Of a DNA stretch of 64,000 nucleotides, positions 22,589 to 30,972 are shown one piece after another. The notes under the pieces were generated by a model. It ran no database searches. It was not told where the DNA came from and was given only the letters and a program-made list of their open reading frames with translations. Both the position numbers and the translations under genes were made by a program. The DNA lies in assembly GCA_947172415.1 (NCBI GenBank), contig OX359199.1, forward strand, positions 6,525,884 through 6,589,883, written 5' to 3'. Origin of the DNA: Chondrosia reniformis. Lineage: Eukaryota; Porifera; Demospongiae; Chondrillida; Chondrillidae. The first letter of the stretch is position 1. Each line of letters begins with the position of its first letter.

Positions 22589-25500
22589 ATGGCCTCTTTC
22601 ACCAGAGAGGAAATTTCATTTTTCAGGGAGCAGTATGGTAATAACCTGACCAATAATTCTAGAGGATTGAATCAAGAGGGATATTTAATTGCTATCCGTG
22701 CGTCTATTGAGAGAGCAAATCTTCGCAGGTTCCCCGATGGACAGTTGATAAAGGATTTCAATAAGGCTAGGAGAGATGACACTTTATCTTGGCCCCAGTT
22801 TTTCCAAGTAAGAATTAAATAGTAAAGATTGGTCGAAAACTGTTCATCTATTCATTGTTAGGTTGTTTAAGCAATTGTACCTGCCTTTCTACGCGTTTCG
22901 TATAATGCTCGTACGAAGCACAGTTTAGGCTAAAGGTGCACGATTTTATCTTGGCGCAGAAAGCCCATCGTTGTTTAGCTTCAGAGAACGTTTGCGAACT
23001 ATTTTAAACGCATTGTTGCCAAACATTTTATTTATTTTCGCTTGATCGAGAAATTATGGATTTTGTTTAGAGTAAGGCAACATTGTACGTCAATATTTGT
23101 GTAATGTTGTTTTTTACAACACTTCAATTGGCTTCACTTTCTAACTCCATTTGGAGCACCTGAAACTATGTCAGATTTCAAGATGATTTAACTGAGCATC
23201 CTTTTGTACCAGTTGCATTAAATAACACAGAGTGTAAAGTATGTAGGAGGAAGTATTTGACATCATTCTACTTCTGCAGTATATGTTAATTTGAGATACC
23301 TGGGTCAATTTTGAAACACAGTCTTAAGCTGGTGGTCCCTGGGGGTGGAGCATCAGCTGGAGGTGTGGCTCATACACAGTTGTTCCATAAACTCCTCAGC
23401 TGTAGGTACAGATAGGTCCCTTAGATTAATAGGCTGGTTTTGCTGATTGAGTTAGCAACAGATAATTGTTGGATGTCATTGTTATTGTTAGTGTACAATA
23501 CTTTGGTTTAGTAGTATTGAGAAGTATTAATGAAACTAGATACAATTTTGACAACTTTGACATTTCTAGTAACAGTAACTGAATACATAATTGAATCTTT
23601 GTAAATTGCTGAAGCAAAGTATCAGCTTATTAAGCCGTGTCAGCATACACCCAATTATATACAGTTTAGTTAAGACACATACTTGAAATGGTATATATCA
23701 TCACAAATGAACCACATAAGACAGGTTTACAATAGTTGGAGAGGAATTCTGAAGATGGACCTACCACCAACCTAGTAGGAAGTACTGGGATGGCTAATTG
23801 CTGGTCTGTGTGGTTGGCCTTGTACAATTTCACAATTTCTCCTGACACCTGTTAAGTGTGCTAATGTCACAGTGATAGTATTGCCTAATGGTTGTTGAGG
23901 TGGTAAATGTATCTGTTATCAGGTCACTTGTTATAGCCACCCACTTACAAGAGTGTAATTGACTAGTGGTATTAATATGCTATGAAACCTATGTACCTAC
24001 CAATATATGTATGTATGCATGAGCAGGAGAGATGAATATAGGTGATGTCAGCTGTCTTGGGTATCTGTTGTATCACTTTAATATTTGTTTTTTTTTTTGT
24101 AGATTTTGCAGAAGATTAGAAACATGGGTCCTCCCGTGGAAGGAGAAGAGGGACCTCCAGCCAGTGGAAATGAATCTCTACATCTGACCGGACTTTCTGA
24201 GGATGTGGGAACCGAGCCCAGCAGAGGTATTCACAGACAACAGACCCTCCTTCGTACCATGAGAAGGGGGATGGAACTGGTTGGCAACTTCTTTGGTGTT
24301 GCTGGTGAAGAGGATCCGTTATGGGATGATGCCAACAGAGTTGAGGTAAATGTACTTTAAGCCTCCCTTCTGAACTTACTTGACAAACACCATTTTCTGT
24401 TTCTGATACGTACAAGAATATTGAGCTGTTTTGTGGTACATTGATCCTCTTAATGTCAATTCTTTCACTTCTGTATATATGAATGTATTGTCAGGTATAG
24501 TCAGTCACGTGTCTGTAGCGGTTGCTCTAGATTTAGTTTCTAGGTCTCATGGAGCACATTGCTGTACAAACAGGCCTGCTTTAGTATAGTGATGTGTTGC
24601 CCCAGTAACACTGGTATGTTGGTATAGTAACTGCTACACATTGGCCTATTTGGTAATAGGGAGGTGTAGGAGGAACCAATGTACAAAGCTCATCCATACA
24701 GGTGTTAGTTCTGTTATTGTAAACTAAAGGTGTTAATGTAAGCTGTGCAATCATGTGACTGAGAGACCCAACCTATATAGACTTTCCAGTTTAACAACTA
24801 CTTGAAATATAACACTAACAAACATGGAAATATAAGTAAGTTGGTAATTGAAATATTAACAAAGAATGAAGTCATTGACTCTAAAATTCAAATGTTAAAA
24901 AGTTTGTAACACAGAGACTTCCTTCTGTTACAAAGTAGAGGTTTGCCCTGTAGAGAACTTATAAGCAAGCAATTTATGGGCCAATGGACACAAAAGGGCT
25001 ACATAGAGGGGAGCAGGGAGGGGCATTTGCCCCCCCTAGACTTTTGGAAGTTAATACAAACATTCTTCAACACCCTCACACCTATTTACATGTGGAATGC
25101 TTAGCATTCTTCTTATGGGTACCACGTACGGCTTGTTTTATTTGTTAGTTACCCACACTGCAATAAATTGTTGGAATACCAGAGGCTTTCAGAGTCCCAT
25201 TGACTGAGGGAAATACATATACCAAAACTGTGTCTTCTTTGATTGTGAATGCAGTATTGTTCAGCCAGCTGAGAGTTTTCCCATATTTATGCATCACCAT
25301 TGAATGATACAATGACACTTGAAGGATAATCACATGATCACATGATAACATACAACATTTGAGATGGTTCATCTGTAGACTGAAGAAGGGACCCTAAGGG
25401 TCGAAACATCTGATTCTAAAGATCTATAGATGCTCAAAAGAGAAAGATGAACCATCTCAAAGATAGGTTTGATGCAGTTGGAAGAAATCCCTATCATCTA

Positions 25501-28238
25501 ATACATAGAAGTAGTTTTGTTGTGTTTCTTCTGTGGTCTTTATCTTCTTCCTCTGTGTCCATCTTCTTTAGTCTGGAGGAGCTACTCTGACACTTGGCAG
25601 GACAGGCTCGGTGAGGAGACAGTATTCCAGAAGGGACAGGAATGTATTACCCACTGGACCAGCAGAGGTGATTGTCTCACCAATGATATCCTCCCAGGAG
25701 CACGGTGTGGAACCATCAGCTCCCCAGTCATCCTTTGGAATGATTGATTTCGGTTCCTCAAGCAGCAGTGAAACAGATTCAGATACGGAAGACTTCTTCA
25801 TTACTCCAGCTCCCCCAGCCTATGGTGATGTGATAGAGGCTCCGCCCCCAAGACCCTCTTCCGTGCCAAATGCTGAAACCTCATTTGGTGAAGATAGAGG
25901 TCCTGCTCTCACCATTCAGAGGGCTTCGGCCTACATTGTGACCCCCGAGCCGATGGGTGTCTCCAATGATGCATTTGAGATCCCACCAGAGCTCATTGAG
26001 GAGGTAACTAGACAGCCAGGTAGGATGTCAGGGGATTTCATCTATGATATTGACCTCGCCTACCGATATTATGAGGACTTTGTTAAGGTACGCTTGGAAC
26101 TGCCAAACACATTATGGTGTATGCTGTTTACTCTGTAAAACTCTTAAATTATGCAGAGTGAGAAGAGAGCTCTGAGGAGAAGGGCTCAGCAGAATGCACA
26201 AAGCTTTTTTGGGGGAGAAGAGGCCAACTCGTGTAAGTTGCTTACGGGTTTATTAAAGGGATCTCTAAAATGAACTTTTGCTAATGCAATTTGCTCTTTG
26301 TTTAGCTGCTCAAAATGGTGCAGGAGGTGCTGGCCAATCTGCAGCTGGTGGACGTAGAAAAAGAAGGAAGAGAAGAAAGCTTGCACGTCAGGGCACTCTT
26401 GTTCGGCAAGAGGTTGAGTCTCTACCTACCTTCTTTCCTTTCTTTACTCTGACCATTACAATCACTCAAATTGTGGCTTGTATTGTCCTCTTGGTCTTGA
26501 ATGGAATAGCCCCAATTAATATTCGTCCCCAGATGGTGAGTCTAACTGTGCCTTCATTAGCAGCCGAGAATGGCACTGTCACAAAGACAGTGATGCTCTC
26601 CTCAAACCTTTGGATTGGTTCAAGGCCCGTCAGTCTCATTCAATGGGGTGCAAAGTTTAAGCCTTGTATGAGAGGAGATGATGCCGTTACTGCAAGAAAT
26701 TCAAGGGATACCGATAATGAAGCTGGTCCTCTTGGGTGTTGCATAGGAGTTAACAATACTGGGACTACCGTAGAAGAGGAGTGCTTTGGACAAGTTACAG
26801 ACTGTTCCAATGTGACCAGTTGTAGTATCAATATCACACAAGCCATCTTTGTTAGAGGAGGGTCATGTATCTCACAGGGATTTGGGCCAACCTCTACAAT
26901 GGACAAGCGGTTCTTCAGGCCCTGCTGTGTGTCACTGACTGGCGCCTGTGTAGTGGTATCTGAAGAAGAGTGTACAGCCAGAAAGGGAATTTACCACCCA
27001 AAATATGATAACTGTAGGGAGATCAATTGCCTGAGGAATGTTTGTGGTTTTGATGGGTATGGCATACCAAAGCAGCGTCCTATAGCACCTGTAGCATCAA
27101 CTGATCCTCCACCTGAAAGACCCGACCAGTGGTGGAGGTGGATTATTCCCATCTTCCTCCATCTTGGAATCATCCAGCTGATAATATTTATGGCAGTGCA
27201 GCTGTATCTGGGAATCAAGATAGAGCGATTTGCAGGATGGCTTAGAATTGGTTCCATTTATATTTTAAGTGGATTTGGTGGCCTACTGGTAAGTGGCTAT
27301 GTAAAGCCTCCTAGTGCAAATGTACAACATTTAAAGGACCTGGCAAGTGAAGTGTATCCTCAATATATGTATGTATGTAGAACATTAAACTAGTGTCTAT
27401 TAATATATGTATGTATAAAATGATTTCTACAGTTTAATTCTCCAACCCTGAACCTAAATTACTGAAAAGAATTGAAATTACATATGTATGTATACATACA
27501 CTATAAACACCTCCCCTTTCCTCTTGTATCACATTGCTGATGAAGACCTTCGGGTTGAAACGTTCTATGCATGTTGCAGTTGCTCAATAATCTCAGAATC
27601 CTATGTATGTATATGTATGTATCCGTATATGGCTGTGTGTATGTATCCGTATATGGCTGTGTGTATGTATTCTGGCTTTATTGGGCCTCAGCAATAATTG
27701 TATTCACAAATTTTGAGTTGTTATAAGTCCTTTTTGCTTGTACATTCCATAGTTTAGTGCAATATTCATACCTTATGAGGTGTACTTTGGAGCTAGTGGA
27801 TGTGTGTCTGGTCTGCTGGCTGTATTTTTGATTGAAGTTCTCCAAACTTGGAAGATTAATGATTATGCTTGGCTGGAACTGATTATCTTTATTGTTGTGA
27901 TTGTCATCTTGGCCTTCCTGGGAACTCTTCCTTACATTGATAACTTTGTCAGCATTGGAGGATTTATTTTTGGCCTTTTGTCAGCCATGGTATTCCTACC
28001 CTGGGTTACTTTTACCAAGCGTACACAAAACTGCCGATGTATCATAATAATGATAGCTTTGCCAACTCTGGTTATTCTGATGATCCTGGGTCTTCTAGTG
28101 TTCTATCTCCTGCCAGACAAGCAAGCCAATTTCTGTACCTGGTGTCACTACATCAATTGTATTCCCTACTTCGAAGGCCTGTGTGATGTTACCAACCCAT
28201 CTCCAAACACTGAAAACCTTCAAACAGTTGGACTCTGA
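22589..28238 (+). CDS. RHBDF: Inactive rhomboid (iRhom, RHBDF-type pseudoprotease)
   Basis: iRhoms are ER/Golgi polytopic proteins that traffic ADAM17 and EGF-family ligands. Exons 22589-22807, 24103-24345, 25572-26087, 26157-26232, 26306-27288, 27753-28238 give 840 residues (human iRhom1 855). A long cytosolic N-tail ends in a basic cluster (GRRKRRKRRKLARQG). TM1 (about 400-424) ends LNGIAPI as in iRhoms. A large Cys-rich lumenal iRhom homology domain with N-glycosylation sequons follows, then the rhomboid core: FLHLGIIQLIIF, ERFAGWLRIGSIYILSGFGG, SAIFIPY, GASG (Ser about 694), IDNFVSIGGF (about 742-751), and a Cys-rich end WCHYINCIPY. Vertebrate iRhoms have GPAG (Ser lost) but keep His in NFAHISG. 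Here Ser is kept and the His position is Ser746, so the dyad is still broken. Introns 1 (1.3 kb), 2 and 5 contain repeat debris. Confidence 0.93.
25370..25500. repeat. Retroelement-terminus-like fragment with GAAAC hairpin, intron 2 of iRhom
   Basis: Contains ctgaagaagggaccctaagg then gtcgaaacatc, i.e. CTGAAGA followed by a GACCC-TAA-GGGTC hairpin and GAAAC. The downstream segment gtttgatgcagttggaagaa recurs almost exactly at 30582-30604 in an MGAT1 intron, so this is interspersed. A similar hairpin block lies at 27536-27562. Confidence 0.6.
27536..27562 (+). repeat. Hammerhead-core-like block CTGATGA-hairpin-GAAAC
   Basis: Reads ctgatgaagaccttcgggtt then gaaacg: CTGATGA, a GACC-TTCG-GGTT hairpin, then GAAAC, in iRhom intron 5. 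This order matches the catalytic core of hammerhead ribozymes but has an extra A before stem II, and I could not pair convincing stems I and III. Confidence 0.35.
27605..27668. repeat. Short direct repeats in iRhom intron 5
   Basis: tgtatgtatccgtatatggc occurs twice in tandem within a TATG-rich stretch. Confidence 0.8.
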
Positions 28239-28645
28239 TGCAATGTAATTAGTGCTGATAACAGTAGACTTTTTGTAATGATTTGCATGACTCCAATAAG
28301 TTATTCTGTCATTGCTGTAGTTTCCACTTGTGTACTTGTATATAGTAATCATTTATTGCATGGTACATGGTTCAATTCCCAGCAATTGCTTCTTTCGTGT
28401 TTTTCCCTCTTTATGATGTTTCATTGATTATAACTTGTGGTTTGATTATCACATCGATTATTCATGTAGATGAGGTAGCATTATATGGTGACGAATCAAG
28501 GTTACGTATAAGAACTTAGCAGATCTTGAGTTCAGGCAAGAATGTCAAATTTTTAACAAGGTTTCTCTATAGCCAGCTTTTGAATTTACCGCCTTAGCTT
28601 TAGATTGAGGGGTCCTACTCCTTGATGCTCCATTGTACGTAGTCA
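28239..28645. other. Intergenic iRhom-MGAT1 spacer with SINE
   Basis: 407 bp. Holds the iRhom 3' UTR, SINE copy 2 (28361-28466) and the presumed MGAT1 promoter. No other gene seen. Confidence 0.7.
28361..28466 (+). mobile_element. tRNA-like SINE copy 2
   Basis: Plus-strand copy with a T-arm-like ggttcaattccc and the tail cagcaattgcttctttcgtg, ttttccctct, ttgattatcac and attattcatg shared with the copy at 18871-19010. The anticodon-arm half is more diverged here and the tail has small indels, so this copy is probably older or 5'-truncated. Confidence 0.8.
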
Positions 28646-30972
28646 ATGAAACTACAGAATTATTTGCTATATGGAACAATTATTTGCGCCTTCTGGATTT
28701 TGTTGACATGGATGATCCTACATTTAAACGAAGGCCATCTTGACAAGAAGCAAGTGAGTCTTTTCCTTCTTTGTGTTTTCATTTTCGCCACAAAATGGGT
28801 TCCTTTGCGTAGTTAGAAGATTACTACGAAGAACTTTCCAAGCGATTCAGGGCCGAGTTAAACTTTAAGCTCGATAATTTGGACGCAAGGAATGTAAGAC
28901 AACTGAATGAACTTCATAGTGAAATCAACAGATTACAAAGTAAGGGGCAAACTTACAATTGTTACCTGATGCAATAAACACCTTTTTTTTTCATTTTTAA
29001 CTTGTCAGGAAAGCTAGATGCTTTAAAAATAGCAACTCATCCTTCTGAAGCAGTTCAGAGTAGAAGCACTAGTACTACTGCTTCCAAACAAAATGATGGC
29101 GGCAAGCAGTTAAAACGAGTGGGCACATCTGATACCATAGCAGTGTTACTTCTGGCTTGCAATAGAGAGTCTTACCTGAAGAAGACACTGGACCTTCTCC
29201 TGCATCTGAGACCCTCGGCTGAGGCCTTTCCAATTATAGTCAGCCATGACTGCAATCACCAAGCAACCGCCAATCAGATTGCATCATATGGCAATCAGAT
29301 TACATTCATCAAGGTAGCCATGTTATGTCCCATATGTACCTCAAACATGCAGTAGACATGCTGTATATTGTCTCTCGACTCTCAGCAACCGGATCAGAGT
29401 GTTATAGATCTACCTGCCAAAGAAAAGAAGTTTGAAGGATACTATAAAATATCAAGACATTATAAATTTGCTTTAAATCAAGTCTTCAAGACAATGGACT
29501 ACAAATATGTTATAATAGTTGAAGGTACACAATTGTATATAAGTACATTTGTCACTCTAAATGTGTTCCTAATGTGGTTGCATTTATTCCTGTTCAGATG
29601 ATCTGGAAATATCTTCTGATTTCTTTTCCTACTTTGGCTCAACAAGATGGCTACTGGACAAGGACCCATCAATTTGGTGTATATCAGCATGGAACGACAA
29701 TGGAAAAGACAGCTTTGTCTCAGGAAATGGTACACATACATTGAACATTTCTGTTTATTATTTTATCCTTTTTACTGTCTCCTAGAGATACTGTACAGGT
29801 CAGATTTCTTTCCTGGACTGGGCTGGATGTTGAAGAAAGATCTTTGGGAGGAATTGGAGCCTAAATGGCCCGCAGGGTAAGTGCTGGATTATAGGCAACT
29901 GTACAGTAGAGGTGTGCCCTCTGGAACTTGATTTCTTTCACCGAGCGGCCATCTTAATTATGTCTTAGGAATCTTATTGGATGCCTATTGTTTTAAAGTG
30001 TTTGTCTACTTCATTAGATATTGGGATGACTGGATGAGAAACTCAGAGCAGAGGAAGGACAGGTGAGTCTGGACATGCAGGTCCATCTGTGTGTTGGCTG
30101 TCAAGGTCATCTCACACGAGCTTGTTTTACTGTTTATTTGTCATATACATATGTATGTATGATTTATATAGTATTGTGTACTATGCCATCCATACAAATT
30201 ATGTATAATACTATGTATTTCCTATACCGTGGGCTATGTAGAGTAGACATGCAAGCCCTTCTTTGATAACAATAAGGGTCTCCTGCTTGCTACCTATATA
30301 TGTGTATGTGCTATTGTACGTTGTTTTGGTAGGGTTTGCATCAGACCTGAAGTGTGTAGAACAAGAACATTTGGGGAGACAGGCGTCAGCAAAGGAGAAT
30401 TTTACAAGACTCACCTCAAATTTATTAAACTAAACAGTGATCCAGTAGACTTTTCTAGGAAAGACCTTTCATATTTAATTAAAGTAAGCTTTTATTAAAG
30501 AGACATTATTTGTGAATAGAAATGTAAAAATTGTCATAAAATGGTACAACTTCTGATGGGCCTATAGAGATGTACAAAACTAAGTTTGATGCAGTTAGAA
30601 GAAATCTTTATTCTGTTATATTAGGACAGCTATGATCAATCCTTTCTAAGTCATGTATATGGTCTCCCTGAGATGGAGTACCAGCAGGCTCTTGCCAACT
30701 ACAAGCCAGAGCTCACTGAGATCAGAGTGACCTATGTTGGGTTGATTCAGTTTGCATCCTTTGCTAAGAGATTCAAGATAATGGCAGATTCCAAGGTAAG
30801 TAGACCAGACTGAAGAGCAGGTGGACATTGCTTCAGACATTATGTAGCTGCTAGAAATGCTTTTCTCTTGATCCCCCTGCAGTCTGGAGTCCCAAGAGGT
30901 GCTTACAAAGGAATTGTTCCATTTATGTACAATGGAAGAAGAATTTTTATGACACCTCCGAAACCAAGCTAA
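28646..30972 (+). CDS. MGAT1: Alpha-1,3-mannosyl-glycoprotein beta-1,2-GlcNAc transferase (GnT-I)
   Basis: Medial-Golgi GT13 enzyme adding the first GlcNAc to Man5, starting hybrid and complex N-glycans. Exons: 28646-28753, 28813-28939, 29009-29313, 29386-29524, 29598-29729, 29786-29876, 30018-30062, 30333-30483, 30625-30795, 30883-30972; 452 residues (human 445). Short N-tail, one type II signal anchor ([20 protein letters not shown], residues about 6-25), then a stem. The catalytic domain starts [19 protein letters not shown]. Diagnostic blocks follow: [35 protein letters not shown] with the EDD metal/UDP-binding motif (about 226-228), [30 protein letters not shown], and [20 protein letters not shown]. 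The start codon is chosen because it alone supplies the anchor. MCMBP begins 90 bp after the stop on the same strand. Confidence 0.97.

What the first reader, a model, noticed from the sequence alone, without database searches (positions are those of the whole stretch)
27753..28020. iRhom with the catalytic dyad broken the opposite way from vertebrate iRhoms
Sequence: the TM4 motif is GASG (Ser at 27795-27797), as in active rhomboid proteases, while the TM6 position equivalent to the catalytic His reads Ser (NFVSIGG, codon 27951-27953). Established: vertebrate iRhoms show GPAG (Ser and flexibility lost) but keep the His (NFAHISG). The rest of the protein (IRHD Cys-rich lumenal loop, GIAPI TM1, Cys-rich C-terminus, 840 aa) is iRhom-like. 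Inference: either pseudoenzyme status arose by separate dyad losses, or this lineage preserves an intermediate in which the proline substitution had not yet occurred. This would bear on when and how iRhoms lost proteolysis.
Basis: partly seen in the sequence, partly recalled or inferred. Interest (0 to 1): 0.85.

Follow-up and report, generated by a model that had tools for sequence, protein, structure and literature searches.

The report
Sponge iRhom relative lacking its proline
A sponge carries a relative of the animal regulator protein iRhom that kept the old protease serine but lost the partner histidine, and related proteins elsewhere still carry all the parts expected of a working protease site, so these proteins seem to have lost their enzyme function several separate times.

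Summary
The window is chromosome 11 of the demosponge Chondrosia reniformis. A six-exon gene (22589-28238, +) encodes 840 aa with the iRhom homology domain (IRHD). TM4 reads GASG (Ser694); the TM6 histidine position is Ser746. Two more active-site positions in TM2 are lost (Gln642, Phe646), so the protein is almost certainly proteolytically dead. It belongs to a clade apart from canonical iRhoms that lacks their 'invariant' proline; the same genome also holds a canonical GPYG+His iRhom. Of 25 proline-less rows with both motifs readable, 10 have Ser+His, 10 Ser only, 3 His only, 2 neither; of 89 proline rows, 88 keep His. The window's three nearest relatives keep His, so its His-to-Ser change is a late, local loss. 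One unnamed EukProt protein (P0134) combines an IRHD with every rhomboid active-site residue. The IRHD therefore probably predates loss of proteolysis, and iRhom-like pseudoenzymes arose repeatedly by two routes: proline with His kept, or His loss with Ser kept. Branching order is unresolved, most relatives are unnamed, and activity of P0134 and the Ser+His forms is inferred, not shown.

The parts
22589..28238 (+). iRhom-like gene, six exons: 22589-22807, 24103-24345, 25572-26087, 26157-26232, 26306-27288, 27753-28238; 840 aa
   Evidence: splice model (GT-AG throughout); the 4 distinct PDB sequences matched at E<=0.001 are all iRhom1/2; Pfam Rhomboid 7.6e-25
22589..22807 (+). exon 1: N-terminal helical domain (residues 1-73), shared with P0004 and P0145, no Pfam match
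26503..27045 (+). GIAPI end of TM1 and IRHD; 11 of its Cys (472,496,497,511,558,559,566,574,588,593,598) are Cys in 19 of 19 other rows
27160..27189 (+). TM2 motif HLGIIQLIIF: His637 kept; the next two active-site positions read Gln642 and Phe646
   Evidence: alignment with 14 bacterial rhomboids
27789..27800 (+). TM4 GASG, nucleophile-position Ser694 (27795-27797), no proline
27942..27953 (+). TM6 NFVS: catalytic His position is Ser746 (27951-27953)
   Evidence: second contig P0008
28134..28184 (+). C-terminal Cys tail (C807, C810, C815, C823) typical of iRhoms
   Evidence: first three Cys in 17 of 17 rows, the fourth in 16 of 17

Best explanation
The gene encodes a catalytically dead IRHD rhomboid of a clade that lies apart from canonical iRhoms and lacks their proline. 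Shown: IRHD, rhomboid core and C-terminal Cys tail; Ser kept; catalytic His and two TM2 active-site residues lost; place apart from canonical iRhoms; nearest relatives keep His. Inferred: an IRHD-bearing ancestor was an active protease. Canonical iRhoms were shut off by a proline before the serine, with the His left in place. In proline-less lines proteolysis was lost instead by separate His (or Ser) substitutions, with TM2 decay; in C. reniformis the last step was His-to-Ser. The protein most likely works as other iRhoms do, as a secretory-pathway cofactor that binds membrane clients such as ADAM10/17-type sheddases through TM1 and the IRHD, for which the dyad is not needed.
For: Gene model and motifs. 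iRhom1/2 are the only PDB matches at E<=0.001, 4 distinct sequences. Eleven IRHD Cys shared with 19 of 19 rows. In a 20-row tree from TM1 to the C-terminus the window, with eight relatives, and ten canonical rows lie on opposite sides of a 100/99 branch, P0134 on the window's side; the window plus seven relatives have 100/99 of their own. IRHD family apart from bacterial rhomboids and the sponge's own RHBDL4-like protein, 99/100, catalytic columns removed. Window grouped 100/100 with P0002, P0006, P0007, all NFVH; at least 3 His changes on the exon-6 tree of 51 rows. P0134: IRHD + HIGVIHLVFN + GSSG + NWAH; its model matches iRhom1/2 over 436-470 columns and GlpG over about 137. No second copy of the window's gene found in the genome. 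Proline before Ser abolished Rhomboid-1 activity and virtually abolished that of AarA (Zettl 2011, PMC3149277, passages). In human iRhom2 TMD1 forms the main membrane interface with ADAM17, and the IRHD contacts its prodomain (PMC11248996, passages).
Against: No expression or activity data. Proline-less rows are not shown to be one clade: in the rooted core tree the seven-row group needs 2 changes and is whole in 24% of bootstraps, and on the exon-6 tree P0031, P0051, P0092, P0106, P0046 and P0058 fall on the canonical side (93/83). P0132, on the window's side, carries a proline (GPCG). The order of P0134/P0116 against the rest is unresolved (AU p 0.155 for the 17 other rows, P0046 left out, as one clade). 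The exon-6 tree has 154 columns and was rooted on P0134/P0116 by choice. The bacterial outgroup was found with patterns that include the TM6 DNxAHxGG motif, so its TM6 His is there by selection. Most relatives are unnamed, many single exons; no proline-less row with readable motifs other than the window has a named host. A client is not shown: metalloprotease exons match ADAM10 best, and the ADAM17-domain search was uninformative.
Confidence: 0.8

Rival explanations
1. Proline-less members descend from a canonical GPxG iRhom, and the GASG serine (and complete sites) re-evolved.
For: P0132 (Dysidea avara) reads GPCG and groups with Ser-bearing, His-less proteins on the exon-6 tree (100/97), so proline was gained or lost at least once near these proteins; some proline-less rows fall on the canonical side there (93/83), and the deep order is unresolved.
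Against: P0134 and P0116 carry all the active-site residues seen in the 14 bacterial rhomboids aligned (the TM6 His of those was part of the search pattern, the TM2 and TM4 residues were not); regaining them together is unlikely. Canonical rows form their own clade (99/96).
Confidence: 0.1
2. The window protein is still a protease, using Ser694 with another base or with water.
For: Ser694 and the TM4 motif are intact.
Against: No His from residue 638 to 810, and TM2 positions are Gln642/Phe646.
Confidence: 0.04
3. The His-to-Ser change is an assembly error, allele or decaying copy.
For: No transcript was available here.
Against: A second contig has the same NFVS in a 99% identical piece that differs by one residue (P0008); the assembly is from HiFi reads with QV 69.8 (PMC12181767, passages); the frame is intact over six exons.
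Confidence: 0.04

Closest known systems
Canonical iRhoms (iRhom1/RHBDF1, iRhom2/RHBDF2, Drosophila rhomboid-5)
   Same: IRHD with the same Cys pattern (vertebrate, cephalopod and own canonical rows), rhomboid core, C-terminal Cys tail, long N-terminus, lost catalysis
   Different: Proline rows read GPx and keep the TM6 His in 88 of 89; the window has GASG and Ser in place of His, and no Pfam match besides Rhomboid
Active rhomboid proteases (GlpG, bacterial GASG/AH rhomboids, RHBDL secretases)
   Same: GASG motif, rhomboid domain
   Different: No catalytic His, no TM2 His/Asn pair, plus an IRHD described as unique to iRhoms (PMC8233286, passages)
C. reniformis canonical iRhom on C4:6970035-6971911 (-)
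   Same: IRHD and C-terminal tail
   Different: GPYG + QWAH and a DITEWPICT stretch like the DITKWPICT of P0005; other side of the tree

Membership tests
iRhom as defined by Zettl 2011 (PMC3149277) | IRHD between TM1 and TM2 | tested here: met
   11 IRHD Cys shared with 19 of 19 rows; iRhom1/2 PDB alignments
iRhom as defined by Zettl 2011 (PMC3149277) | long N-terminal cytoplasmic domain | tested here: met
   about 390 residues before TM1 in the gene model; TM1 start and cytoplasmic side are inferred; exon-1 domain has no Pfam match
iRhom as defined by Zettl 2011 (PMC3149277) | invariant proline before the Ser position (GPx) | tested here: not met
   GASG
iRhom as defined by Zettl 2011 (PMC3149277) | catalytic Ser and/or His missing | tested here: met
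   His replaced by Ser746
iRhom as defined by Zettl 2011 (PMC3149277) | binds ADAM17/EGF-family clients | not testable with these tools
   needs co-immunoprecipitation
Proline-less IRHD clade around the window (this report) | IRHD family member outside the canonical proline clade | tested here: met
   8-row clade 100/99, apart from canonical 100/99; 100/100 with P0002/P0006/P0007. That all proline-less rows are one clade is not shown
Active rhomboid protease | Ser-His dyad | tested here: not met
   Ser694 present, His absent
Active rhomboid protease | TM2 His/Asn active-site positions | tested here: not met
   Gln642/Phe646
EF-hand protein (exon-1 domain) | paired EF-hands with Ca ligands | tested here: inconclusive

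The most novel reading that the evidence does not exclude
IRHD-bearing rhomboids that are working intramembrane proteases ('active iRhoms') still exist: P0134 with every active-site residue and an IRHD, probably its relative P0116, possibly also the Ser+His proteins. The IRHD, described as unique to iRhoms, would then have arisen on an active enzyme, and the pseudoprotease state would have evolved several times by two chemically different routes.
Probability: 0.5. Interest if true: 0.87.

Novelty: new variant of a known kind. Interest (0 to 1): 0.7.

Why it matters
iRhoms are a leading case of a protease turned regulator, described as carrying an invariant proline and an IRHD of their own. A living series, from an IRHD protein with a complete site, through Ser+His without the TM2 Asn, to Ser only, plus a proline route with His kept, makes the order of events testable: client-binding domain first, catalysis lost later and more than once.

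Tried and rejected
One scan each of genome and viral contigs with the exon-6 profile gave no relatives; a second genome-contig scan gave bacterial rhomboids, of whose 80 kept loci I used 14 as outgroup. A search of the sponge genome with P0116 (E<=10) returned only the two iRhom genes, which does not prove that RHBDL1-3-like secretases are absent. An EF-hand reading of the N-terminal domain was tried and not established. ADAM17 proper was not shown in the genome. The named sponge hits are Geodia barretti (P0145, which ends before TM4; P0126 is 79% identical to it) and Dysidea avara (P0132, GPCG+NFAN). The table covers 133 rows and does not count most of the 120 proteins listed (many vertebrate iRhoms; the named vertebrate rows checked all read GPAG with His). 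Literature: searches (20 of 113 listed) listed, by title and start of abstract, no paper on sponge iRhoms or an active IRHD rhomboid; this is only the open-access library. Two papers cited for rhomboid evolution, Lemberg and Freeman 2007 and Kinch and Grishin 2013, are not held, so what they say about sponges is unknown to me.

Full report
Observation. The gene on the + strand has six exons with GT-AG borders and encodes 840 aa. The only PDB matches at E<=0.001 are iRhom1/2 chains (4 distinct sequences); in the three alignments printed GASG lies on GPAG and NFVS on NFAH or NIAH. P0008, a 99% identical 144-aa piece from a second contig, differs by one residue and has the same NFVS, but starts after GASG.

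Source. Nine contig lengths were compared with the table of Chondrosia reniformis odChoReni1.1 (PMC12181767, passages read; lengths): eight agree to the printed digits, including the 17,451-base last contig (17.45 kb mitochondrion); C4 is 8,954,400 b against a printed 8.96 Mb. The total is 117,379,552 b against a printed 117.37 Mb. The window is on contig 11.

State of the active site. In an alignment with 14 bacterial rhomboids, all 14 show H-x4-H-x3-N in TM2, GASG in TM4 and NxAH in TM6; they were found with a pattern that includes the TM6 motif, so only the TM2 and TM4 agreement is free of selection. The window shows H-x4-Q-x3-F, GASG, NFVS. With no His between residues 638 and 810, a Ser-His dyad is not possible. 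GlpG numbers S201 and H254 are in Zettl 2011 (PMC3149277, passages); that the TM2 His and Asn are H150 and N154 of the oxyanion hole is recalled.

Two kinds of iRhom in one sponge. The same genome has a canonical iRhom core (C4:6970035-6971911, minus) with GPYG and QWAH. In a 20-row tree from TM1 to the C-terminus it joins the vertebrate and cephalopod iRhoms, while the window joins eight metagenome or sponge proteins, separated by a 100/99 branch; P0134 lies on the window's side, and one of the eight, P0132, carries a proline. The window and seven of them have 100/99 of their own. A genome search finds no second copy of the window's gene.

Spread of states. Protein searches (the last two list the best 120 of 228 and of 479 hits) gave the 133 rows tabulated: the window, the second sponge iRhom, P0002-P0125, and seven rows added by hand. 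Of these 114 have both motifs readable. Nineteen were set aside: P0004 and P0060 by hand as misaligned, 17 because TM4 is missing or unreadable. Of 89 with proline, 88 keep His and 12 keep Ser. Of 25 without proline, 10 have Ser+His, 10 Ser only (window among them), 3 His only, 2 neither. Rows are not independent, and the 24 others have no named host. On the exon-6 tree (51 rows, motif columns dropped, rooted on P0134/P0116) His changes at least 3 times and Ser 11 times; the window's clade with P0002, P0006 and P0007 has 100/100, and only the window has lost His. On that tree the window's wider group (20 rows) has 94/79, and some proline-less rows (P0031, P0051, P0092, P0106, P0046, P0058) fall on the canonical side (93/83). 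Proline-less proteins may thus be a grade rather than a clade, which would agree with proline as a derived trait.

A complete site with an IRHD. P0134 is a 504-aa EukProt protein labelled complete, organism not given. It has the IRHD Cys pattern, TM2 HIGVIHLVFN, GSSG, NWAH and the iRhom C-tail. P0116, 48% identical, has the same complete set over TM2 to the C-terminus; whether it has an IRHD is unknown. PDB sequence hits of P0134 are iRhom1/2 at 8e-70 to 1.4e-73 and GlpG at 0.0037. Its AlphaFold2 model (mean pLDDT 65; most of the rhomboid core 86-95, but 61 and 64 in the ten-residue blocks that lead into the TM4 and TM6 motifs) matches iRhom1/2 over 436-470 columns (E down to 1.8e-18, TM-score over query 0.52-0.57) and GlpG over about 137 columns; active-site geometry was not measured. 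In the rooted core tree the IRHD family is separate from the outgroup (99/100), canonical iRhoms are a clade (99/96), P0134+P0116 pair (98/98), and the deeper order is open.

Interpretation. Proline before the serine abolished activity in Drosophila Rhomboid-1, strongly reduced it in mouse RHBDL2 and virtually abolished it in purified AarA, so canonical iRhoms can keep His, and sometimes Ser, and still be dead. In the window's own 20-row group no row with TM4 readable has that proline; there TM2 has decayed (second His and/or Asn changed in each of the six members with TM2) and His was lost in some lines. I infer an active IRHD-bearing ancestor, because regaining the active-site residues in P0134/P0116 is harder than repeated loss. 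For function, the cryo-EM paper reports that iRhom2 binds ADAM17 through an interface formed primarily by TMD1, not the rhomboid substrate site (PMC11248996, passages); so the window protein can keep a client-binding role without the dyad. Metalloprotease exons are present in the genome; the two examined match ADAM10 best, one of them also ADAM17. Binding is not shown.

Limits. No transcript, no activity, no names for most relatives, short exon-level alignments, RHBDL1-3 secretases missing from the outgroup.

Noticed in passing
22589-22807 (exon 1): N-terminal 73-residue domain shared with P0004 and P0145 (Geodia barretti), predicted as four helices; EF-hand proteins appear among weak, non-significant structural matches, and RHBDL3 is reported to have N-terminal EF-hands (PMC12476590, passage). 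Not established.
   Followed up: partly
28643-30972 (+): The next gene downstream encodes a GNT-I family (PF03071) N-acetylglucosaminyltransferase: two of its exons match.
   Followed up: partly
27542-27564: GAAGACCTTCGGGTTGAAACGTT in intron 5: the pattern was written from this stretch and has no other match with up to 3 mismatches in the window; a looser likeness is visible near 25387-25410, so it may be part of a dispersed repeat.
   Followed up: partly
P0059, P0067, P0074, P0079, P0085, P0089, P0090, P0236 among others: A number of canonical iRhoms read GPSG + His, so the serine is sometimes kept behind the proline (12 of 89).
   Followed up: partly
P0132 (Dysidea avara): A named sponge protein annotated as iRhom1-like has GPCG, NFAN and YNGVIQ in TM2: proline and His loss together, the one exception among 89 proline rows.
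   Followed up: no
L007 (C5:7617397-7617831) and L008 (C5:507705-508124): Two other rhomboids in the sponge genome; the first looks RHBDL4-like, a name given from recall.
   Followed up: no
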